DNA from: an uncultured Ectothiorhodospiraceae bacterium
Lineage (GTDB): Bacteria; Pseudomonadota; Gammaproteobacteria; Nevskiales; Oceanococcaceae
Reading direction: 5' to 3'
DNA length: 64,000 bases
Assembly (NCBI GenBank): GCA_937141935.1
Contig: CAKZQS010000040.1
Location: 62,001 to 126,000, forward strand
In this document: one piece after another, positions 51,404-63,408 of the stretch
How positions within the stretch are numbered: the stretch's first letter is position 1
Layout: each line of letters starts with the position of its first letter
Notes under the pieces: model-generated
What the model was told of the DNA's origin: nothing
The model's input: the letters and a program-made list of their open reading frames with translations, nothing else
The model's database searches: none
Position numbers and translations under genes: made by a program

Positions 51404-51490
51404 TGGTGCCGGAGGCGAGAATCGAACTCGCACTCCCGTGAAGGAACCGGATTTTGAATCCGGCGCGTCTACCAGTTCCGCCACTCCGGC
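51404..51490 (-). tRNA. tRNA-Leu (anticodon CAA)
   Basis: An 87-nt class II tRNA: acceptor GCCGGAG/CTCCGGC, D-arm region, anticodon stem CCGGA/TCCGG with loop TTCAAAA (CAA), long variable arm and encoded CCA. It reads UUG. It is the last host feature before the prophage integrase, whose 3' end points toward the 5' side of this tRNA. Confidence 0.97.
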
Positions 51491-51529
51491 ACTAGGGAAA
51501 ACAGTAACTTACGGTATGCCCGCGAATAC

Positions 51530-51573: not shown

Positions 51574-52578
51574 TTAGCGCACTGGCCGGGTCGTGCGGGC
51601 CCTGCGGTTCAGGTAATTTCGCACCGTCACCGAGCCGTCTGCATGCGACAGTAACTCGAAAGGGTTGTCCGCCTCATTCGCCGACATCGCGCGAATGTCG
51701 CGGAAATGGAAGCCTGCTGATAGGTCGCCGTCGGCTATCGCTTTATCCACCGCGGCGCGAAAGCGCTTGCTGAATGTTCCCGGCTTCACGGGGTCGCCGT
51801 TGCGCTCGGCCAGGAAGTAGAGCGTCGGCCGGCGCTGGATCTCTTTCGACCGCGCGTAGGCCCAACGCAGCGTCGGCGACCAGGCCCAATGGCGCTTCTT
51901 GCCGCCGCGGCGATCGGCCGTTCGCTGGGACTTCGATTCGACGTAGCGCAGCCCGTCGTCACCGAAGTTCGACCGCATCAGCGCGAGCAGGTCGCCGCGC
52001 CGGATCCCGGTGACGCGGGTCATCACCATTCCAATCTGAACGTCGGGGGTGGCGCGGTTGAACACGGCGATGAAGTCCTGCTCGACCACGTCGGTTTCCC
52101 GCGGGTATTCGGTCAGCCGGGGCACGTCGCGGCAGGGGTTGCGGTCGATCAGGCCCTCGAGCACGGCGATTTTGCAGATCCCCGACAGCACGGCGACTTC
52201 GCGATTGGCCTGGTGCACGGACTGCCGGCCGCGCAGCTGCAGGTACTTGTGCACATGGGTTGGCCGCAGGGCGCGCACGTCCATGTCGCCGAATACGGGC
52301 CGCAGCTTGGCGAGGTGGCCCCGGTAGTCGACCTGGGTGCGCTCCCGCTTCTTGGGCAGCACCTCGGCCATGTAGCGGTCCATGAGCGCACCAAGGCGCA
52401 GGGAGCCGCCGGCCGCCTCGTCGCCGCCGTAGTGGATGACCCACTCCGGCATGAGCTCGGCCAGCGTCGCGAAGTTCTTGGAGCCGCCCTGCGGCAGCAC
52501 CAGCTTATAGGGCATCTTCCTCTTGACGAGGTAGACGTAGGAGGGCAGGTGTTTGTTGCTACGCCGCTTGCGTCCCAT
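51574..52578 (-). CDS. prophage tyrosine integrase
   Basis: A 334-residue tyrosine recombinase. The core-binding SAM-like domain lies at about 65-155 and the catalytic domain at about 165-325. The first Arg is in GIRRGDLLAL, the box II segment reads FHFRDIRAMSA (the usual HxxR position has Arg-Asp-Ile-Arg, as in some phage integrases), then LLSHADGS and the nucleophile Tyr in VRNYLNRR near the C-terminus. ATG 52578 overlaps the DUF4224-like gene by 20 bases. Confidence 0.9.
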   Translation of the reverse strand: MGRKRRSNKHLPSYVYLVKRKMPYKLVLPQGGSKNFATLAELMPEWVIHYGGDEAAGGSLRLGALMDRYMAEVLPKKRERTQVDYRGHLAKLRPVFGDMDVRALRPTHVHKYLQLRGRQSVHQANREVAVLSGICKIAVLEGLIDRNPCRDVPRLTEYPRETDVVEQDFIAVFNRATPDVQIGMVMTRVTGIRRGDLLALMRSNFGDDGLRYVESKSQRTADRRGGKKRHWAWSPTLRWAYARSKEIQRRPTLYFLAERNGDPVKPGTFSKRFRAAVDKAIADGDLSAGFHFRDIRAMSANEADNPFELLSHADGSVTVRNYLNRRARTTRPVR

Positions 52579-52792
52579 CGCCAAGGGCTTCCCAATCCGG
52601 CTCACCGTTTGTACTGGACGCCGGCGCCGCACTGCCGCCACCCAGCCTTTGCTCCACATGCGACCGCAGGACGACAGGGTGCCCGTGGCGGTCGAGCTCG
52701 AAAGCATACTGCCGGTCGGCCAGCCACTCCAGCTGCTTGCTCTTGTGGCTGGTGCCTGTGAGCTCCCGTAGCTGTTGTCGCGTCAGGAACAC
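52559..52792 (-). CDS. DUF4224-like prophage protein
   Basis: A 77-residue protein. MFLTRQQLRELTGTSHKSKQLEWL and the later GHPVVLRSHVEQRL fit DUF4224, a small winged-helix-like family that sits next to phage integrases and may act as an excisionase or integrase partner. Position before the integrase with a 20-base overlap agrees. Confidence 0.8.
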   Translation of the reverse strand: MFLTRQQLRELTGTSHKSKQLEWLADRQYAFELDRHGHPVVLRSHVEQRLGGGSAAPASSTNGEPDWEALGDGTQAA

Positions 52793-53798: not shown

Positions 53799-54029
53799 CT
53801 AAGCGACGCAAAGGTGTTCGTCGTCGTTGACCTCGTACACACGCAGGCCATTCACCTCGGGCCGGTGCGCGCCCTCTCGCAATTCCTCGCTCTCGACATA
53901 GCCGGTTTCCCGCGCCCATCGCATTAGCCGTTTCATCGGCTCGCGCCCCAGGTAAACCCAAGTGGCGGCATGGCCGCTGTCCCTTGAGTGAGCGACAGCC
54001 GCCCTGGTTATCTCGACAATCAATTCCAT
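53799..54029 (-). CDS. hypothetical prophage protein
   Basis: A 76-residue acidic-to-neutral protein, mostly helical (MELIVEITRAAVAHS, EPMKRLMRWARETGYVES), ending in a short beta hairpin. No family recognised. Base composition is lower in GC than the flanking prophage genes. Confidence 0.5.
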   Translation of the reverse strand: MELIVEITRAAVAHSRDSGHAATWVYLGREPMKRLMRWARETGYVESEELREGAHRPEVNGLRVYEVNDDEHLCVA

Positions 54030-54033
54030 CGCT

Positions 54034-54441
54034 CTACCCTCCTACCGGGATTCGGGCGGGGCGACCGCTGGCCGCCAGCGCCGACATGGCCAGGTCGTGA
54101 AACCGCTCAAAGAACTTGGGGATCAGGTCGTCGTAGTCAGGCGTGCCGGCGATAGGAAACCCGATCTGCTCGTCCAAAAAGTCCGTGAGTTCCTGGGTTT
54201 TCTCATGAACCTTTCGATAATCGGGAAAGTGCATCCTCATCACGTCGTGCGGGAGGCACCCCTTATGGACGGCCACATAAAAAGCGCACAACTCGCTGTG
54301 CCTCTCGGCCTTTTCCGCGCCATCCAGTCGGCCCTCTGAATTGACGATCAAATACCGCGCAATCAGGGAGTCCGTGTGGATTTGGCAGGCGCGCCGAAAG
54401 TAAGTGGCCAGCAAGTTGTTGCTATCTTGGGATTCGTCCAT
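54034..54441 (-). CDS. hypothetical prophage protein
   Basis: A 135-residue, helical protein (DLIPKFFERFHDLAMSALAASG near the C-terminus). No motif recognised. It is 4 bases from the next gene on both sides, consistent with one operon. GC content is lower than in the host region. Confidence 0.5.
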   Translation of the reverse strand: MDESQDSNNLLATYFRRACQIHTDSLIARYLIVNSEGRLDGAEKAERHSELCAFYVAVHKGCLPHDVMRMHFPDYRKVHEKTQELTDFLDEQIGFPIAGTPDYDDLIPKFFERFHDLAMSALAASGRPARIPVGG

Positions 54442-54445
54442 CGCT

Positions 54446-54859
54446 CTACTCCTTCGCTGCAATGCAAGCCGCCGCGCCGTTATGCGTCCTGAGTAAGCCG
54501 CGACCAACCGCACACAGAGAACGTCTGATTTGCCCAAGCTCTAAGCGGAGCGCCTTCTTCCGATCAAAAAGCTCTGCCAGCCGCATCTGCTCGGGCGTGT
54601 ATTCGGTTTCTGCATTCTCAAGGGCGGCTACCCAGCCTTGCCACGGCCCGCAATTCTCGGCCCCCGGGTAATCGCCACCCATCCATTCCGCTCGAAACTG
54701 GTCGAGATTCGGCGGCTCCTCAGTCAGCGGATATGCACCATAGAAGTCCTGAATCTGCCTTTGCACTTCGCGGTGTTGGGCGCGGTTCTCGGCCATGCGC
54801 ATAACCAATCGCTTTAGCCGACGCTCCGCGCGCCGCGTGATTTCTTGAGGGTTATTCAT
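54446..54859 (-). CDS. hypothetical prophage protein, helical
   Basis: A 137-residue protein with a charged helical N-terminus (RRAERRLKRLVMRMAENRAQHREVQRQI) and a coiled-coil-like C-terminal half. Not recognised. It overlaps the upstream gene by 8 bases. Confidence 0.5.
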   Translation of the reverse strand: MNNPQEITRRAERRLKRLVMRMAENRAQHREVQRQIQDFYGAYPLTEEPPNLDQFRAEWMGGDYPGAENCGPWQGWVAALENAETEYTPEQMRLAELFDRKKALRLELGQIRRSLCAVGRGLLRTHNGAAACIAAKE

Positions 54860-55199
54860 GGCGCGGTTTAGTTGCAGCGTTAGCGGGCTCAAATCCGAGC
54901 ATCCCTTTGCTTATGGCCTCGGCGACCTTCACGGCAAGCTCAGCCTGACCGCTGCCGGTGTTGATTTCATAGGCACCCTGGGGCGTGCCAACGCTGTTCT
55001 CTCCCGGCAGAACCTTGAGCTTGTAGAAGCGCGCCGGGGTGGCTGTGCAAAAAACCTGGACAGTCTGGCCGTCCCCGCCAGCGCGTGTGTCGAAAGTCGC
55101 AACAAGCGTTTCTTCCCACGGCTCGAAAGCGGACGGCCCAGCCCATTTATCTCCGAAAGGTGTGCGGTCTCTATCCTGCGCTTCAAACAGAAAATCCAT
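54852..55199 (-). CDS. hypothetical prophage protein
   Basis: A 115-residue protein with a beta-rich middle (QTVQVFCTATPARFYKLKVL) and a helical end. Not recognised. Lower GC than the rest of the prophage. Confidence 0.45.
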   Translation of the reverse strand: MDFLFEAQDRDRTPFGDKWAGPSAFEPWEETLVATFDTRAGGDGQTVQVFCTATPARFYKLKVLPGENSVGTPQGAYEINTGSGQAELAVKVAEAISKGMLGFEPANAATKPRHE

Positions 55200-55201
55200 G
55201 T

Positions 55202-55567
55202 TTATTTCTCCCTGGCGTCGGCTGACGCGGATTGGGGGCTAGGTTTCACCATGCTTCTTGCCAATCGCAAAATCACATCGTCAGGCACATCCACAAATTC
55301 CGGCGTCAGCGGCGGAACTCCGTGATCGTCCGAGTAGTTGTCCACCTTTTTCCCGTCCACGGCGTCTGCGCGGATTGGATTGTGGATCGAGCCAATCTCA
55401 AAAACGTCAACATGCTGGTCGATCTGCGGCAGAACGAAACTGCGAACCACCCGAATTAGCAATTCGTGTTCGTCCAGCTCAATGCCGGCATCAAAAATCA
55501 GGTCATCCAGCATGCTGCCGTCGCCGAAGCCCCATTTACTGAGCAGGCAGCGTGTATAAAATCTCAT
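55202..55567 (-). CDS. hypothetical prophage protein
   Basis: A 121-residue acidic protein (ELDEHELLIRVVRSFVLPQIDQHVDVFEIG). Not recognised. It is separated from the Thg1-like gene by 18 bases and marks the right end of a lower-GC block (about 53.5-55.6 kb). Confidence 0.45.
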   Translation of the reverse strand: MRFYTRCLLSKWGFGDGSMLDDLIFDAGIELDEHELLIRVVRSFVLPQIDQHVDVFEIGSIHNPIRADAVDGKKVDNYSDDHGVPPLTPEFVDVPDDVILRLARSMVKPSPQSASADAREK

Positions 55568-55585
55568 GCGTCCGAACCCCGCTGC

Positions 55586-56425
55586 CTATTCACCCGGCGC
55601 ACGCGAGAAGGGCGTGCGGCCACTTCCCTCGCAGTCCGGGCATTCGTCCATGTAGCCGCCCGGCCCGGGCATAATGTCGCCAAAGCCGTTGCAGCGCTGG
55701 CAGCGGTCGCTTTGCGCGGCGCGGTTTTGGAGTAAATCGGCATCGACTCCGAAAAGTCTTCCAATCGCTGCGTGGATGTCCGAATTGGTCGGCCGAATAT
55801 CGTGCCGCTCTGTAATTCCATCCTCGCCCTGAATAAGGAACGTCCCGTTTTTCTGCTGCGGGGACAGTTCAGTCGTCCAGTTCCTGCCAATGCCGTGCAG
55901 CATGTCGTGCACCGCCTGGCGCTTTTTCCCGTGCAGCTGCTGGTGGCTGAAATGGGCGCGGGCGTACATCTGCAGGCTGTTCCGCTCCCAATCCTTCGCC
56001 CGCCACAGAAAGGCGTTGACGACGTCGCTCGCCGGCACCGAGAAGGCCCGGGCGTCGAACACGGGCGTCTTGCCGTCACCCATGTGCTGGTTGAAGCGCG
56101 CCGTCATCAGCGCGGCCGAGATTGAGACCACCTTCATGAGGTCGTAGTCGAACCAGCCCTGGCTCTCGACCCGGTCGTAGTCGGTCACGCAGAAGGTCGC
56201 CTCGTCGGACTGGATGTAGGCCGCCTTGAAGCCCTGCATTTCGCTGGCGACGTAGCGCGCGGCCTCCACCATGGCTTCGGTCAGCCGGGGGTCGAAGGGC
56301 CGCTCCATGCCGCGCGTGTAGGTGTGGAAGGCCCGGCCGTCGACGCGGATCATCAGCGGGGTCCGGGCGGTCGCCGTGAAGTGGCTGACGGCCTCGTATC
56401 GCTTGATTCGGTCGCCCAGCGTCAT
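55586..56425 (-). CDS. Thg1-like 3'-5' polymerase with DnaJ-type zinc finger
   Basis: A 279-residue protein. Residues about 1-235 are Thg1-like: IRVDGRAFHTYTRG (about 22-35) carries the first metal Asp and the GRxFH signature, and QSDEATFCV (about 70-78) the second acidic pair. tRNA-His guanylyltransferase and its relatives add nucleotides to tRNA 5' ends in the 3'-5' direction or repair truncated tRNAs. The C-terminus (about 240-275) adds two CxxCxGxG motifs, CQRCNGFG and CPDCEGSG, as in the DnaJ zinc finger. Its ATG overlaps the MazG-like gene's stop. The zinc finger is unusual for Thg1 and may bind RNA or a chaperone. Confidence 0.85.
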   Translation of the reverse strand: MTLGDRIKRYEAVSHFTATARTPLMIRVDGRAFHTYTRGMERPFDPRLTEAMVEAARYVASEMQGFKAAYIQSDEATFCVTDYDRVESQGWFDYDLMKVVSISAALMTARFNQHMGDGKTPVFDARAFSVPASDVVNAFLWRAKDWERNSLQMYARAHFSHQQLHGKKRQAVHDMLHGIGRNWTTELSPQQKNGTFLIQGEDGITERHDIRPTNSDIHAAIGRLFGVDADLLQNRAAQSDRCQRCNGFGDIMPGPGGYMDECPDCEGSGRTPFSRAPGE

Positions 56426-56760
56426 TGCGGCACCCGCGCCAGTTCGGCTGCGTTCTTGGCCTCGATGCGGTCTTCCACGGCGCGCTGCAGGTCGATGGTC
56501 CGGCCGGGGCAGGTGTTCGCCAGGCGCAGGGCGCACACGACCAGGTCCGCCACATAGCGGTCCACGCTTTCGGGCGGGAAGTCGCTGCCGCCGTGCTCGG
56601 CATCGTTGACCACGGCCGCCAGCTTCCCGGCGGCCTTCTGCACATGCAGCAGCGCGTGGCCGAAGTCTTTGTGGCTCATGGGCGAGGCCCGGAAGTCACG
56701 GTGGTAGTGCACGGTCCAGGGCAGCTGCGTTTGCAGTTCCCGGAGCGTCAGGTCTTTCAT
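56422..56760 (-). CDS. MazG-like nucleotide pyrophosphohydrolase
   Basis: A 112-residue all-helical protein. The pattern HALLHVQKAAGKLAAVVNDAEH followed by VADLVVCALRLANTC and DLQRAVEDRIEAKN resembles the four-helix MazG-like NTP pyrophosphatase fold, whose acidic residues bind Mg and cleave (d)NTPs to monophosphates. Some of the usual ExxE acidic positions are unclear, so this is a fold-level call. It overlaps neighbours on both sides by 4 bases. Confidence 0.6.
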   Translation of the reverse strand: MKDLTLRELQTQLPWTVHYHRDFRASPMSHKDFGHALLHVQKAAGKLAAVVNDAEHGGSDFPPESVDRYVADLVVCALRLANTCPGRTIDLQRAVEDRIEAKNAAELARVPQ

Positions 56761-58173: not shown

Positions 58174-58589
58174 CCGTTGGCCCTCCGATAGATTGCGTTC
58201 ACGCGCCGGCTGGCGGCCTTGTTGAGCCCGCGCTGGTAGCCAAGGCCGTATTGACGCGGGTGGGGGTGGCCGGCGCCGCGGTAGGTCGCAATGGCCTCGC
58301 CGTCACGCTCGCCCTCCCGGTAGGCCGCCTGCATGCTGGCCAGCGGCTCGGGGCCGACCAGCTGCCGCAGTTGCTCGAGCGATGCTGCAGAGGCCACGAC
58401 GGCGTCGCGCTGGCGCCGCCGGCCTGCCGCATAGGCAACTGCGGCCGGCAGCCCGGTGGTGAGCAGCACGGCCAGCGGCAGCCACCACGGCAGCCGCCCG
58501 TCGCTGTGCACCACATCGACCAGCGCGGCGGCGGGCCAGGCCAGCGCCAGCGTCACCGCCAGCATTTCGGAATACCGCGGCGCCTTCAT
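58170..58589 (-). CDS. prophage membrane protein
   Basis: A 139-residue protein: two helices near the N-terminus (SEMLAVTLALAWPAAALVDVV; WLPLAVLLTTGLPAAVAYAAG) and a soluble, Arg-rich C-terminal half. Unassigned. ATG 58589 overlaps the upstream J-domain gene's stop by 4 bases. Confidence 0.55.
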   Translation of the reverse strand: MKAPRYSEMLAVTLALAWPAAALVDVVHSDGRLPWWLPLAVLLTTGLPAAVAYAAGRRRQRDAVVASAASLEQLRQLVGPEPLASMQAAYREGERDGEAIATYRGAGHPHPRQYGLGYQRGLNKAASRRVNAIYRRANG

Positions 58590-59182
58590 CGCTGCAGCTC
58601 CCCGCGCGCCTGCTCCAGCGCCTCGTTGATGTCCCGGAAGGCAACGCCGGACCCGCCCGCCTTGTCGGGGTGGTGCTTCTGGCGCAGCCGGCGCGCCGCC
58701 TGCTCGGCGTCTGCGAGCGTCGCGCACGCGGCCAGCCCCAGGACGGCCCGCCAGCCCTCCGAGGGCGGCAGGGCCTCGAAGCCGGCGTAAGCCTTCTCGA
58801 TCAGCCCGCTCGCGCCGGTGCGCTGGATCTGCCGCATTGCGCCGATCGCCAGCGCCAGCGCCCGCAGGTTCTCGTAGGGGCGGCGGAAGGCGTCGCAGGC
58901 CAGCGCCATGCGGCGCTCCGATTCGCTCTCCACGAAGTAGACGGCCACGCCGGGGTCTTCGATGGGGTCTTCCAGCGAGCCGGCGTAGGGCCGGCCGCGC
59001 GTCGAGACCGGGCAGTTCGTCGTGACCACGGTCAGGCAGTCAGTGCTGGCCAGCTTGCGCAGTTCCTGCTCCAGGTCTTCCGTCGCCGCGCTGGGCGAGA
59101 TCCGGTAGCGGGATTCGACGCGCTTATCCGCCGCCGTGCGCGGCCAGCCGGTCGGCCATTCCAGGGGCGATCGGAAGTTCAT
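58586..59182 (-). CDS. phage J-domain protein
   Basis: A 198-residue protein. Residues 1-140 are unassigned. The C-terminal 60 form a J domain: AEQAARRLRQKHHPDKAGG with the HPD motif, and DINEALEQARGEL. J domains stimulate DnaK/Hsp70, so it could recruit host chaperone to phage replication proteins, as lambda replication does by other means. It lies about 2.2 kb upstream of the Thg1-like gene bearing a DnaJ-type zinc finger, in the same transcript. Confidence 0.78.
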   Translation of the reverse strand: MNFRSPLEWPTGWPRTAADKRVESRYRISPSAATEDLEQELRKLASTDCLTVVTTNCPVSTRGRPYAGSLEDPIEDPGVAVYFVESESERRMALACDAFRRPYENLRALALAIGAMRQIQRTGASGLIEKAYAGFEALPPSEGWRAVLGLAACATLADAEQAARRLRQKHHPDKAGGSGVAFRDINEALEQARGELQR

Positions 59183-59547
59183 GGCTGCCCCCCTTGGTTC
59201 CAGCCGAGCGTCACCCCGTCCTCTTGCAGGAGCCCGCCGGCGAGCGCGCGGATGTCGGAAAGGTGCGAGCGCACGGCCGCGAGTTCGGCCGCCTGGTCTC
59301 CGCTCGAAACCGATGGCCGCAGGCCGATTCGGTACAGCTCATCCAGCAGCTGCTGCGCCTCGTCCAGTTGCAGCGTCATGGTCGGTTCAACGATGGGCAC
59401 ATCGTCGCTGTGCTCCCGCATCGTCAGCGGGTCGGCCATGTGGGCTCTGTACCTGCTGAACACGACGAGGCCGATGCGGTTGCTGAAGTCAAGATGCTGC
59501 GCGGCGAACAGGTGGCCGGCGGCCGGCGGACCGATTTCGGCGCTCAT
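59179..59547 (-). CDS. hypothetical prophage protein
   Basis: A 122-residue protein with a helical C-terminal half (LQLDEAQQLLDELYRIGLRPS...LAAVRSHLSDIRALAGGLL). Start at 59547 is supported by the ATGA overlap with the ATPase gene. No family recognised. Confidence 0.5.
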   Translation of the reverse strand: MSAEIGPPAAGHLFAAQHLDFSNRIGLVVFSRYRAHMADPLTMREHSDDVPIVEPTMTLQLDEAQQLLDELYRIGLRPSVSSGDQAAELAAVRSHLSDIRALAGGLLQEDGVTLGWNQGGQP

Positions 59548-61373
59548 GACACATCCGCCTTGCCGCCTTCAAGCCAGGCCGTCGTGTAGCTCGGGGGGAG
59601 GCCGGTGGGCCGCTGCTTGAACGTGCCCATCAGCAGCGCGCCGTCCAGCAGGTCTGCGCCGTTGGCGCACTTGTCGAGCCAGGTGAGCAGCTTCACGCGG
59701 TGCTTCACGCTGTTGACGTCGACGCGGTCCAGCATGATGAAGCGGCTACCGCTGATTGCCGCGATCATCACCGCGAGCATGGCGTTCGCCCGCCACTGGC
59801 CCGATTCGGCCAGCAAATCGAAGCGGCGCCCGCCGGCGCGGACGGTCATTTCCGCGTCGATCGTCACGACCGGCCAGCCGGCGAGGGCAGCAATATCCGC
59901 CAGCTTCTGATTGACCGGGTCCAGGCTCTCGGCCACCAGTTCCGCGTGGATGCCCCCGGGGCCCAGCGCCTCGGCCGCCGCGGCATAGCCGGCGATCAGG
60001 TCATTCAGCTCGCCGGCGCGCTTGGTCCGCTGCGCCGCGGCCTCGGCGGTGGCGGCGTCCTTGTCCAGCATTTCCTTGTCGCACAGGGCGGCATCAAGGG
60101 CGTCGTCCAGCTGCTGGAACTTGGCTTGGGCCTGCTGCAGGTCTTCCGGCGTTGACTCGGCCTCGATCAGGCCCTCGTTCTCGATCGTGTTGATCTTGCG
60201 CTCGTGGGTCGCGCGCTCGTCCTTGCGCGCCTGCAGCGCGATGTCGGCCGCGGAGACCGCGTCCTCGAGCGACCGGCGCTCGTCGTCGTCATCGTTCTCG
60301 ATGTCCGGCGCCGCCTCGTCGGGGTAGGCGGCCTCGAGTTGTTCGATCGCGTTGCCGACCTCCAGGGCCGCCGGCACCCGGTCCCAGGCCTTGACGCTGT
60401 TGCCGCTGGCCACGCCCTGCGTTTTCTCGACCAGATCCGCGAACTCGCGCAGCACCCAGGCGGCCGTGGCAACGGCGCCGCCTGCGGTGGCCGGCCGGCC
60501 AGCGGCCACGATCGCATCCGTCAGCGCGGCCTGTGCCTCGTCGTAGGCGGCCTGCGCCTTGTCCACGGCCTCGTCCAGCTTGTTCAGTTCCGCCTTGAGC
60601 CCGGGCAGCTGGTTGCGGCGCTCGCGCTGTGCCTTGCAGTGCTCGAGTTCACCCTCAATCCGCCCGATGGCCTGTTGCGCTTCATCGCGTTCGGCGCGGA
60701 GGCTGGTGACGCGCGCGCGGACCTTCTGGTGAGACTCGGCGCAGTAGTGGACCTCGCCCACGCTCCAGGCCTTCGCCTTAACGGCGCCCCACTTCTCGCC
60801 GGTGATTTCCGCCCAGGCGCCTTTGCACTCCCGGGCCTTGGTCTTGGCCTCGTCGCAAGCCTTCTCCATGCCGGCGCCGCGGGTGCGCAGCGTCGGCGCC
60901 AGCGCCTCGATGACGCCCTTCGGGATGCCGCGCTGCTCCATGCGCCGCAGCACCGCCTCGACGTCGGCCGACACGCCGGTGAGCCGCACCAGGAACCGGC
61001 GGCGATCGGCTGTGTCGAGCGCGGTGAAAGCCCCCGGCTGCAGGCAGTAGCGCACCGCGGGCTGGGTGAGCATGGGGGACTCCGCCCATTTGCCCTTGGG
61101 CACCTCGTAGGAGGCCTTGCGCGGCTCGCCGTCGGAGCCCTGCATGCGCAGGAAGATGGCGCCGTCCTTCGCGCCATCGCTGACCACATCGCCAAAATCG
61201 CGCTTGAGCTTGACCCGGGCCATTTCGCCAGTGGCGGCCAGGTTGACCGCCTCAAACACGCTGCTCTTGCCGGCCTCGTTATCGCCGGCCAGCAGCACCA
61301 GGGGGGTGCGGGGCGCAAGCGAGATTTCGCGCGCGCCAATGAAGTTGCGCACCGTCAGTTCTGTCAGTTTCAT
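59544..61373 (-). CDS. SbcC/RecF-like AAA ATPase of the phage recombination module
   Basis: A 609-residue protein. N-terminal RecF/SbcC-type start MKLTELTVRNFIGAREISL with Walker A GDNEAGKSS (about 31-39), a long coiled coil (about 200-480) and a C-terminal ABC half with FIMLDRVDVNSVKHR (Walker B). Not a full-length SbcC. It is adjacent to RecT and the YqaJ-type exonuclease, so it probably works on DNA ends during phage recombination. Confidence 0.84.
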   Translation of the reverse strand: MKLTELTVRNFIGAREISLAPRTPLVLLAGDNEAGKSSVFEAVNLAATGEMARVKLKRDFGDVVSDGAKDGAIFLRMQGSDGEPRKASYEVPKGKWAESPMLTQPAVRYCLQPGAFTALDTADRRRFLVRLTGVSADVEAVLRRMEQRGIPKGVIEALAPTLRTRGAGMEKACDEAKTKARECKGAWAEITGEKWGAVKAKAWSVGEVHYCAESHQKVRARVTSLRAERDEAQQAIGRIEGELEHCKAQRERRNQLPGLKAELNKLDEAVDKAQAAYDEAQAALTDAIVAAGRPATAGGAVATAAWVLREFADLVEKTQGVASGNSVKAWDRVPAALEVGNAIEQLEAAYPDEAAPDIENDDDDERRSLEDAVSAADIALQARKDERATHERKINTIENEGLIEAESTPEDLQQAQAKFQQLDDALDAALCDKEMLDKDAATAEAAAQRTKRAGELNDLIAGYAAAAEALGPGGIHAELVAESLDPVNQKLADIAALAGWPVVTIDAEMTVRAGGRRFDLLAESGQWRANAMLAVMIAAISGSRFIMLDRVDVNSVKHRVKLLTWLDKCANGADLLDGALLMGTFKQRPTGLPPSYTTAWLEGGKADVS

Positions 61374-61377
61374 GGGG

Positions 61378-62403
61378 TCACTCCACGCTCATGGATTGCT
61401 GCGAGGCCGAAGCGCTGCCGTTCTTGGCAGCGGTGGCCGGCGGTTCGGCGGTGCCGTCGTCCCCTTCCGGGCTGTCGCCGCTGGGCTCGGCCGGGGCGGC
61501 ATCGCTCGCCGGCGGCTCGTCGTCGGCCGGCTCGTCGCCCTCGGGCTGCTCCGCCTCGGGCAGCGGCTGGTATTCCCCCTCAATGATCGAGTCGAGCGCG
61601 TGGTTCTGGCGCCGGCCGCGCTGCGCGTCGTCGTCCAGACTCAGTGCCGACTGCAGCTCGGGCGACCGCGGCAGGCTCTTGCACAGCTTGCGGATCGCGG
61701 TCTTGCAGCCCATCGGCACGAAGTCAGTCGCCCACGGCGACGTGTTTTCCTTGCTGTAGCGCTTCGCGGCCGCAACCGCGGCCTTCCAGCCGTTGCTGCG
61801 GTCGCGGATGCGCAACACGCTTTCGAGATTCATGGCCTCGAAGGTGAAGGTGCCGTCCTTGAACACCGCCACGGCGTAGAAGCCGGTGATTTCCCCGCGT
61901 TCGTCGTCGGGCGCCGGGAAGCCGTGCCGCATCAGCGGCCGGTGGCGCAGCCGGCGCTCGCTGCCGAGCTCCAGCTCAAACTCATCGTTCTCCCGGACCT
62001 CGTGGGCGTAGATGTCCTTGATCTGCCCGCTGTTGCGGGCCAGCTTCATCAGGCCCTGGTAGCCGGGGATCAGCTGGCACTCGTAGGTCTCGACCCACTG
62101 CCCGCCGTCCTTCCTGCGCGTCTTGAACGGCACCAGATAGGCCTCGCCCAGCAACCCGACCTCCAAGCCCAGCTGGGCGGACTGGATGACGGCGCCGAAC
62201 ACACTGGCCGGGTCACAGCGCGTGAGCAGCGGCGTCTGCCGGTAGGCAGTGACGCCAATCCGCACCATGCGCTCGGGATCCATGTGCCGCGGCAGAGCGG
62301 CGGCGACCTGGTCTTTGTAGGCCGTCAGCATCGCGGGGAAGGATTTGGGGGGTGGCGACGCCTGGCCGCGCTGGGCGGCGTCTCGAAGTTGTTGACTGCT
62401 CAT
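61378..62403 (-). CDS. RecT family single-strand annealing protein
   Basis: A 341-residue protein. The RecT core (about 20-240) includes SVFGAVIQSAQLGLEVG, YECQLIPGYQGLMKLARNSGQI and WATDFVPMGCKTAIRKLCKSLP. The last about 90 residues are acidic and disordered (Glu/Asp/Ala/Pro), common in RecT proteins. Binds ssDNA and anneals complementary strands with a partner exonuclease (here the YqaJ gene just upstream). Confidence 0.93.
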   Translation of the reverse strand: MSSQQLRDAAQRGQASPPPKSFPAMLTAYKDQVAAALPRHMDPERMVRIGVTAYRQTPLLTRCDPASVFGAVIQSAQLGLEVGLLGEAYLVPFKTRRKDGGQWVETYECQLIPGYQGLMKLARNSGQIKDIYAHEVRENDEFELELGSERRLRHRPLMRHGFPAPDDERGEITGFYAVAVFKDGTFTFEAMNLESVLRIRDRSNGWKAAVAAAKRYSKENTSPWATDFVPMGCKTAIRKLCKSLPRSPELQSALSLDDDAQRGRRQNHALDSIIEGEYQPLPEAEQPEGDEPADDEPPASDAAPAEPSGDSPEGDDGTAEPPATAAKNGSASASQQSMSVE

Positions 62404-62433
62404 AGATCGTGGTCCTCGGTGGATGAGTGCGCG

Positions 62434-63408
62434 CTACAGAGAAAAGCCGCGCTTGATGCAGAAGGGGCGGGCGCCGGACTGAACCTTCGAGAACTGCTCC
62501 AGTTCGTCCGTCGTGTAGCCGGTGTGCTCGGCCAGGCCCTTCCAGTCGGTGCGCTTGCTGTCGCGATTGGGCTTCCACGTCAGGGCCGGCCGGCCCTCGA
62601 CGGTCAAGGTCGTGGCGTCGCGCATGACGAGCTTGATCTTGGCGCGCACGGCCTCGACCTCGTCCTCGGCGTGCTTCAACGCTTCCTTGCCGGCGATGTA
62701 GGAGCGCACCGCGGCGAACAGGTCAGGATCGTCGGTGGCCTCAATCACCTTGTTGGGGTCCGGCTCGACCCAGCGCAGAATGTCGCCGACGCTCGTGGGT
62801 TCCGGGGGCACGCGGGGCAACACATGCTGCTCCCAAAACTCGCGCGCCCGAGCCCGCATGTCGCCGATCAGTTCGGCCTCGGCCAGCTGGGGATAGACAC
62901 GGCTCTCGTCGAAGCCTATGGCGGCCATGGCGAACCCTCGATCCCGGCCGGTGACTCCCAGGCCCCACAGGCACTGCGCCTGCACATGGACAGGTGCGCC
63001 GTCGGGATCGCCGTCCTCGCCCCATTCGGCCGCGGCCATCGGGTGCACGCTCTTAAACTCGCCATTCGCGGGACCATGCTCGCCCGGGGGCAGGGCCTCG
63101 GCGTCGATTTCCGCCTTGAAGAAGGGAAACTCGGCATCGGTGTAGCGCCGGTTCTGCACCTGAACGGTGAACCCACGCTGGCGCAGGACTTCGGCGGCGA
63201 AGGGCTCCAGGCTTTTCCGGCGGGCGAAGAATCGGCGGGTTTCCTCGTTGATTTCGGGGGTGTCCCCGACGATCCGGTGGTATTCCTCCAACGGCGTGGA
63301 GTAGGGCGACACGCCGAGAATGCCGGCGATGTTGGCCCCGCCGATGTAGTAGCGACCGTGGCCAGGATCGGGTGGGGCAAAAACGGTGGATGAGGCTGTT
63401 GCGGTCAT
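62434..63408 (-). CDS. YqaJ-type phage exonuclease
   Basis: A 324-residue PD-(D/E)xK nuclease. GGANIAGILGVSPYSTPLEEYHRI, ARRKSLEPFAAEVL, AEIDAEAL (Asp) and GEFKSV (Glu-x-Lys) are in the expected order, followed by VQAQCLWGLGVTG. 5'-3' dsDNA exonuclease, supplying ssDNA to RecT. The C-terminal about 100 residues include a helical region (KHAEDEVEAVRAKIKLVM). Confidence 0.9.
   Translation of the reverse strand: MTATASSTVFAPPDPGHGRYYIGGANIAGILGVSPYSTPLEEYHRIVGDTPEINEETRRFFARRKSLEPFAAEVLRQRGFTVQVQNRRYTDAEFPFFKAEIDAEALPPGEHGPANGEFKSVHPMAAAEWGEDGDPDGAPVHVQAQCLWGLGVTGRDRGFAMAAIGFDESRVYPQLAEAELIGDMRARAREFWEQHVLPRVPPEPTSVGDILRWVEPDPNKVIEATDDPDLFAAVRSYIAGKEALKHAEDEVEAVRAKIKLVMRDATTLTVEGRPALTWKPNRDSKRTDWKGLAEHTGYTTDELEQFSKVQSGARPFCIKRGFSL

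What the first reader, a model, noticed from the sequence alone, without database searches (positions are those of the whole stretch)
55586..56425. Prophage Thg1-like polymerase carrying a DnaJ-type zinc finger
Thg1/TLP enzymes are the only known 3'-5' nucleotide polymerases. Here one sits in a phage early operon and has two CxxCxGxG motifs added at the C-terminus, as in DnaJ. Known Thg1 proteins to my knowledge lack this domain. Possible roles are repair or marking of host or phage tRNA 5' ends (for example during anti-codon-nuclease defence) or a nucleotide-adding activity on other RNAs. The catalytic Asp/Asp-Glu positions appear intact.
Basis: partly seen in the sequence, partly recalled or inferred. 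Interest (0 to 1): 0.72.

Follow-up and report, generated by a model that had tools for sequence, protein, structure and literature searches.

The report
Prophage tRNA-repair polymerase with zinc-finger tail
A dormant virus in a bacterium carries a gene for a backwards-working RNA polymerase of the tRNA-repair kind, a kind seen in many phages, but this copy has an extra tail with a zinc-finger motif that none of the relatives examined has.

Summary
Window 56425..55586 (minus strand) is one uninterrupted 279-aa frame. Residues 2-228 form a Thg1-like protein (TLP; Pfam Thg1 E=1.9e-25, phrog_4717 E=2.2e-79). The catalytic carboxylates are present, and the predicted fold matches the Bacillus thuringiensis TLP (Z 29.2, rmsd 1.4). 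Residues 242-269 hold two CxxCxGxG motifs. The gene lies in a 63.8-kb prophage bounded by a 45-bp repeat at a tRNA-Leu gene. Phage Thg1s are not new: 127 of 50,697 phage records encode a relative, and an anti-defence role was suggested in 2010. The tail is the new part: 0 of 85 distinct other relatives from fetched loci has a CxxCxGxG motif, nor do four annotated phage or plasmid relatives, so a recent fusion is the simplest reading. A phage DNA polymerase with the same two-motif finger is published (HMO-2011 group). The host encodes G-1 in its tRNA-His gene, so histidine-tRNA maturation is an unlikely job. Most likely it is a tRNA 5'-end repair enzyme with a tethering finger; activity, zinc binding and role are inferred, and a single example shows no selection. 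New variant of a known kind, modest interest.

The parts
55586..56425 (-). thg1-like gene, 279 aa
   Evidence: Single open frame; Pfam Thg1 and phrog_4717
55742..56422 (-). Thg1-like catalytic module, aa 2-228
   Evidence: AlphaFold2 model, pLDDT 90-99 per ten-residue block over aa 1-220; VIA-align Z 29.2 to 4kgm_B over model residues 2-227
55589..55741 (-). C-terminal extension aa 229-279: short helix, then the finger motifs
   Evidence: No CxxCxGxG tail in the other relatives read; low model confidence from about aa 231 on
55619..55702 (-). Two CxxCxGxG motifs (aa 242-249 and 262-269), one putative zinc site
56422..56760 (-). Gene upstream, overlapping the thg1 start by 4 bases (phrog_27761, unknown function)
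   Evidence: six viral contigs with 86-88% identical copies show no thg1 match, though in one (L124) only 105 bases downstream are held
55202..55567 (-). Open frame downstream, 121 aa, no family match
59544..63408 (-). Recombination genes on the same strand: SbcC/RecF-like ATPase, RecT, RecE-like exonuclease
51448..51492 (.). Left attachment repeat (45 bp, over the 5' half of tRNA-Leu 51404-51490); identical right copy outside the window at C40:177245-177289
51574..52707 (-). Phage integrase
   Evidence: phrog_1 E=1e-24; Pfam Phage_int_M above cut-off

Best explanation
A phage-borne Thg1-like protein. By homology it activates a 5'-phosphorylated RNA end with ATP or GTP and adds nucleotides in the 3'-5' direction opposite a template strand, restoring 5'-truncated tRNA acceptor stems during infection or lysogeny. 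In this lineage a small single-site DnaJ-type finger has been fused to the C-terminus behind a short helix, where it most likely acts as a tether for RNA or a partner protein rather than changing the chemistry. Shown: family, active-site residues, predicted fold, in-frame finger motif, absence of the motif in the relatives read. Inferred: enzyme activity, substrate, zinc binding, role of the finger.
For: Family matches. Best solved relative is the B. thuringiensis TLP (phmmer E=1.1e-45; Foldseek E=5.3e-24; VIA Z 29.2, rmsd 1.4, 223 residues). BtTLP R28, D30, S74, D75, E76, K99 and R131 map to R27, D29, S73, D74, E75, K98 and R126 here (from the alignment). The HINNLY stretch of human Thg1 aligns with ERNSLQ here. 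The bacterial and archaeal TLPs investigated are reported to prefer 5'-truncated tRNAs (PMC6471195, passages; PMC3701042, passages). The host tRNA-His gene encodes G-1 opposite C73, so a G-1 role would be redundant. Two other phages have, three genes downstream of thg1, a gene annotated polynucleotide kinase or 2'-5' RNA ligase. The prophage carries other anti-defence matches: Tad2-like and DarB-like.
Against: No RNA ligase or kinase among the 48 prophage frames scanned, nor among 77 of 86 listed neighbours of nine sister-clade loci, where one neighbour did match a Pol-beta-type nucleotidyltransferase. The residue matching BtTLP K43, which contacts the activating ATP, is arginine here (of 72 rows, 41 have K and 25 R). 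The finger is modelled with pLDDT near 50. A single occurrence gives no evidence of selection for the finger.
Confidence: 0.6

Rival explanations
1. The catalytic part works as an ordinary phage TLP, and the finger is a neutral or nearly neutral recent fusion that does little.
For: Only this one of 86 distinct proteins read has it, and it sits on a terminal branch. The last 51 codons have a weaker codon-usage score (0.02 per codon against 0.18 and 0.32).
Against: Both motifs are complete and third codon positions stay G+C-rich (0.765). A decaying tail would not be expected to keep all four cysteines and glycines (inference).
Confidence: 0.25
2. The finger re-aims the reverse polymerase at another substrate, such as an RNA other than tRNA, or docks it on a partner such as host chaperones or the J-domain-like protein of the same strand.
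For: Profile similarity to Anti-TRAP, a protein that binds TRAP and blocks its RNA contact (PMC2896485, start of abstract). A protein with a J-like C-terminus and an HPD motif is encoded about 2.2 kb upstream on the same strand. HMO-2011-type phage DNA polymerases carry a two-motif finger (PMC9038755, passages).
Against: No direct evidence of a partner or RNA. The J-like match is below Pfam's cut-off (22.3 against 27.8 bits), as are the Anti-TRAP and DnaJ matches.
Confidence: 0.12
3. A true G-1-adding tRNA-His guanylyltransferase, as its family name says.
For: phrog_4717 is annotated tRNA-His guanylyltransferase.
Against: The host tRNA-His gene encodes G-1 with C73. The HINNLY stretch of human Thg1 is absent. 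ARAGORN found no tRNA gene inside the prophage apart from tRNA-Leu at its edge.
Confidence: 0.03

Closest known systems
Bacillus thuringiensis Thg1-like protein BtTLP (PDB 4kgk, 4kgm; PMC3701042)
   Same: Same fold over aa 2-227, same carboxylates and most named active-site residues
   Different: BtTLP has 245 aa and its aligned region ends before the finger; its K43 is arginine here
Phage Thg1-like proteins, phrog_4717 (Mycobacterium phage Kalah2 gp116, Rhodococcus phage Weasels2, Bacillus phage G and others)
   Same: Same family on phage genomes; up to 58.9% identity among phage records
   Different: No CxxCxGxG tail in Kalah2 or Weasels2 nor in the 85 distinct relatives from fetched loci
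DnaJ central cysteine-rich domain (PF00684) and Anti-TRAP (PF15777)
   Same: Paired CxxCxGxG motifs
   Different: Two motifs rather than DnaJ's four (four is recalled); below both Pfam cut-offs; fused to a polymerase-type enzyme
HMO-2011-type phage DNA polymerase with partial DnaJ domain (PMC9038755)
   Same: A phage polymerase carrying two CXXCXGXG motifs
   Different: DNA polymerase, finger between exonuclease and polymerase domains, kept across the group (passages)

Membership tests
Thg1/TLP superfamily | Thg1 profile above the curated cut-off | tested here: met
   PF04446 89.7 bits against 29.2
Thg1/TLP superfamily | Three metal-binding carboxylates (human D29, D76, E77; PMC6471195 passage) | tested here: met
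   D29, D74, E75 here, identical in 72 of 72 rows
Thg1/TLP superfamily | Thg1 palm and fingers fold | tested here: met
   Predicted model: Z 29.2, rmsd 1.4, 223 residues to 4kgm_B
Thg1/TLP superfamily | 3'-5' nucleotide addition | not testable with these tools
   Needs an enzyme assay
Eukaryotic-type Thg1 (tRNA-His G-1 addition) | HINNLYN motif (PMC6471195 passage) | tested here: not met
   Stretch aligned with human HINNLY reads ERNSLQ
DnaJ central zinc-finger domain PF00684 | Profile score above the curated cut-off | tested here: not met
   18.9 bits against 32.7, matching only profile positions 39-65
DnaJ central zinc-finger domain PF00684 | CxxCxGxG motifs that bind zinc in pairs | tested here: inconclusive
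   Two motifs at aa 242-249 and 262-269; zinc not tested
Anti-TRAP PF15777 | Profile score above the curated cut-off | tested here: not met
   21.3 bits against 32

The most novel reading that the evidence does not exclude
The zinc finger gives a 3'-5' RNA polymerase a new aim: it captures a specific RNA (phage mRNA, small RNA or defence RNA) or a defence protein, turning a general tRNA repair enzyme into a targeted 5'-end extension enzyme used by the phage against its host.
Probability: 0.1. Interest if true: 0.75.

Novelty: new variant of a known kind. Interest (0 to 1): 0.32.

Why it matters
Thg1/TLP enzymes are the only family known to me that extends RNA at the 5' end (recalled), and the natural role of bacterial and phage TLPs is still open. 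A natural finger fusion offers a ready pair of proteins, with and without the tail, for testing what directs such an enzyme to its substrate, and possibly a module for engineering 5'-end addition. Taken alone it is one domain fusion in one prophage.

Tried and rejected
Frameshift or separate gene for the finger: rejected, one frame. Chance motif: rejected. A separate finger gene beside thg1 in close relatives as the source of the fusion: no paired CxxCxGxG in any frame of L001-L025 and L027-L033; the cysteine stretch in L007 that BLAST joined lies behind stops and is no finger. Source of the finger: its sequence alone gave 3 weak matches (E 0.2-0.5) among 50,697 phage records, none annotated as Thg1, and one weak hit in viral contigs, L134. 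Conserved operon: none of 20 neighbour frames of the prophage matched at E 1e-4 in the 117 thg1 loci then held. Copies of the upstream gene, 86-88% identical, stand in six viral contigs without a thg1 match, though L124 holds only 105 bases downstream. So thg1 looks like a gene that moves on its own. Efflux-pump and transposase rows in the fold list (Z 6-7) are background. CxxCxGxG-bearing genes just upstream of thg1 in the contigs L095, L097 and L098 were considered as a sign that finger and Thg1 work together; three related contigs are too few. Structure of the tail alone: mean pLDDT 54.5, no use. Limits of the tail survey: of 127 phage records only 60 rows were listed; I read the tails of two, and the rest were tested only by where the alignments end and by the tail search, which would miss a divergent finger. 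Of 20 plasmid records I read the tails of two. The second viral scan kept 80 of 175 confirmed loci. The nearest relative, L010, is interrupted (two pieces in different frames), so only its N-terminal part entered the tree; its last Thg1 piece ends in a stop without a finger. The Tsukamurella plasmid row was a long branch with odd composition and carries no claim.

Full report
What is there. The gene runs from 56425 down to 55586 on the minus strand and encodes 279 residues without interruption. Residues 2-201 match phrog_4717, named tRNA-His guanylyltransferase, at E=2.2e-79; Pfam Thg1 matches at 89.7 bits against a cut-off of 29.2. The nearest solved protein by sequence is the B. thuringiensis Thg1-like protein. 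A model made from 72 aligned sequences has pLDDT 90-99 per ten-residue block over residues 1-220 and superposes on that protein with Z 29.2 and rmsd 1.4 over 223 residues, well above the unrelated rows at Z 6-7 (Foldseek agrees). The nucleotide-contact residues that the BtTLP paper names (PMC3701042, passages) and the carboxylates named in PMC6471195 (passage) are kept, except that K43 is arginine here. Of 72 rows 41 have K and 25 have R there, so this is common in the family.

The finger. Residues 242-249 and 262-269 read CQRCNGFG and CPDCEGSG. They score under the curated cut-offs of both DnaJ_CXXCXGXG and Anti-TRAP, as expected if only part of a DnaJ cysteine-rich domain is present. In 144 DNA records (1,355,122 bases, some overlapping) read in six frames, the paired motif occurs at this gene (seen three times because two fetched loci overlap it) and at four other places, all in frames of 212-733 aa. 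The tail's codon-usage score is weak, but its third positions are G+C-rich. A codon-usage gene picker passed over the whole thg1 frame in favour of an opposite-strand frame, and I forced it in later; its coding status rests on homology, and that of the tail on the unbroken frame and the motif. Structure prediction says nothing useful about the tail.

Is the fusion seen elsewhere? I read the C-terminal ends of Thg1-like frames in 113 other loci, which give 85 distinct proteins, 83 of them at least 200 aa: 0 of 85 has a CxxCxGxG motif and 0 has two CxxC motifs. These come from two viral-contig scans, one genome-contig scan and one genome sample; the second viral scan kept 80 of 175 confirmed loci. 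In phage records 127 of 50,697 encode a relative; in the 60 rows shown no alignment passes residue 239, a search with the tail alone met nothing annotated as Thg1, and the two I read, Kalah2 and Weasels2, end without a finger. Among plasmids 20 of 72,556 records match; the two I read, from Thiodictyon (aligned to residue 278 at 26% identity) and Tsukamurella, have no CxxC motif. In whole genomes the gene is rare: 1 of 61 (relatives, the own genome), 3 of 369 (class, including the own genome) and 1 of 398 (phylum sample, Pfam model, the own genome). On a tree of 76 rows the protein pairs with L010 (support 99/90) inside a clade of ten rows (100/98); the other nine, all viral contigs, have no finger (tails). 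Gain on the last branch is the simplest account.

Setting. A 45-bp perfect repeat at window 51448-51492, over the 5' half of a tRNA-Leu gene, recurs at C40:177245-177289 and bounds 63.8 kb. Inside lie integrase, RecT, RecE-like exonuclease, terminase, portal and endolysin genes. The thg1 start overlaps the last four bases of the gene before it. That upstream gene has 86-88% identical copies in six viral contigs, none with a thg1 match, though one holds only 105 bases downstream; none of 20 neighbour frames of the prophage matched in the 117 thg1 loci then held. So thg1 seems to travel on its own. The prophage also carries a Tad2-like gene and a 3831-aa protein with a DarB-like match. I saw no RNA ligase or polynucleotide kinase among 48 prophage frames scanned against Pfam or PHROGs (43 of the 59 predicted, plus five others), nor among 77 of 86 listed neighbours of nine sister-clade loci, where one neighbour matched a Pol-beta-type nucleotidyltransferase. 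Elsewhere Kalah2 has an annotated polynucleotide kinase and Weasels2 an annotated 2'-5' RNA ligase, each the third gene downstream of thg1.

How it probably works. The bacterial and archaeal TLPs investigated repair 5'-truncated tRNAs by 3'-5' addition in vitro (PMC6471195, passages). The host already encodes G-1 in tRNA-His, so histidine identity is unlikely to be the need. I therefore read this as a tRNA 5'-end repair enzyme, plausibly useful when host defences damage tRNA. That idea was raised as a possibility for a phage Thg1 in 2010 (PMC2904730, passage), and Thg1 is placed among RNA-repair functions of jumbo phages (PMC7824862, passage). The finger is most likely a tether for RNA or a protein partner (inference).

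Known or new. The enzyme family, its presence in phages (also passages of PMC3601020, and PMC8504454) and the counter-defence idea are known. A polymerase with a two-motif DnaJ finger is known in HMO-2011-type phages, though in a DNA polymerase (PMC9038755, passages), and a phage protein with two C-terminal CXXCXGXG motifs is noted in phage Riggi (PMC3853051, passages). I saw no mention of a Thg1-finger fusion in the listings of six paper searches; four of these showed only part of their hits, the library holds open-licence papers only, and I read passages, not whole papers. The finding is a new variant of a known kind, resting on one example.

Noticed in passing
window 58586-59182 (minus strand): 198-aa protein of phrog_9210 whose C-terminus resembles a J domain with an HPD motif (22.3 bits, below cut-off). 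With the DnaJ-type finger on the Thg1 protein, two DnaJ-like pieces sit on separate proteins of the same strand.
   Followed up: partly
L116:11081-11503 (C40, right of the window): Tad2-like gene (Pfam: Thoeris anti-defense 2-like domain) in the same prophage.
   Followed up: no
L144:2126-13621 (C40, right of the window): 3831-aa phage protein with DarB-like, methyltransferase-like, endolysin-like and LPD38 matches, a giant polyvalent protein.
   Followed up: no
window 51448-51492: The attachment repeat covers the 5' half of the tRNA-Leu gene rather than the more usual 3' end (recalled), so the prophage lies upstream of the tRNA.
   Followed up: no
L095:2977-3615, L097:3105-3929, L098 near 472: A separate CxxCxGxG protein is encoded a short way upstream of thg1 in three related viral contigs.
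   Followed up: partly
L116:1790-2533 (C40, right of the window): DUF5131 protein matching PADLOC candidate-defence models PDC-M41B and PDC-M30B.
   Followed up: no
window 54000-56000: A dip in G+C to 57-59%, against 64-71% in most windows around it, reaching from downstream of thg1 into its 3' part; possibly a recently inserted stretch.
   Followed up: no
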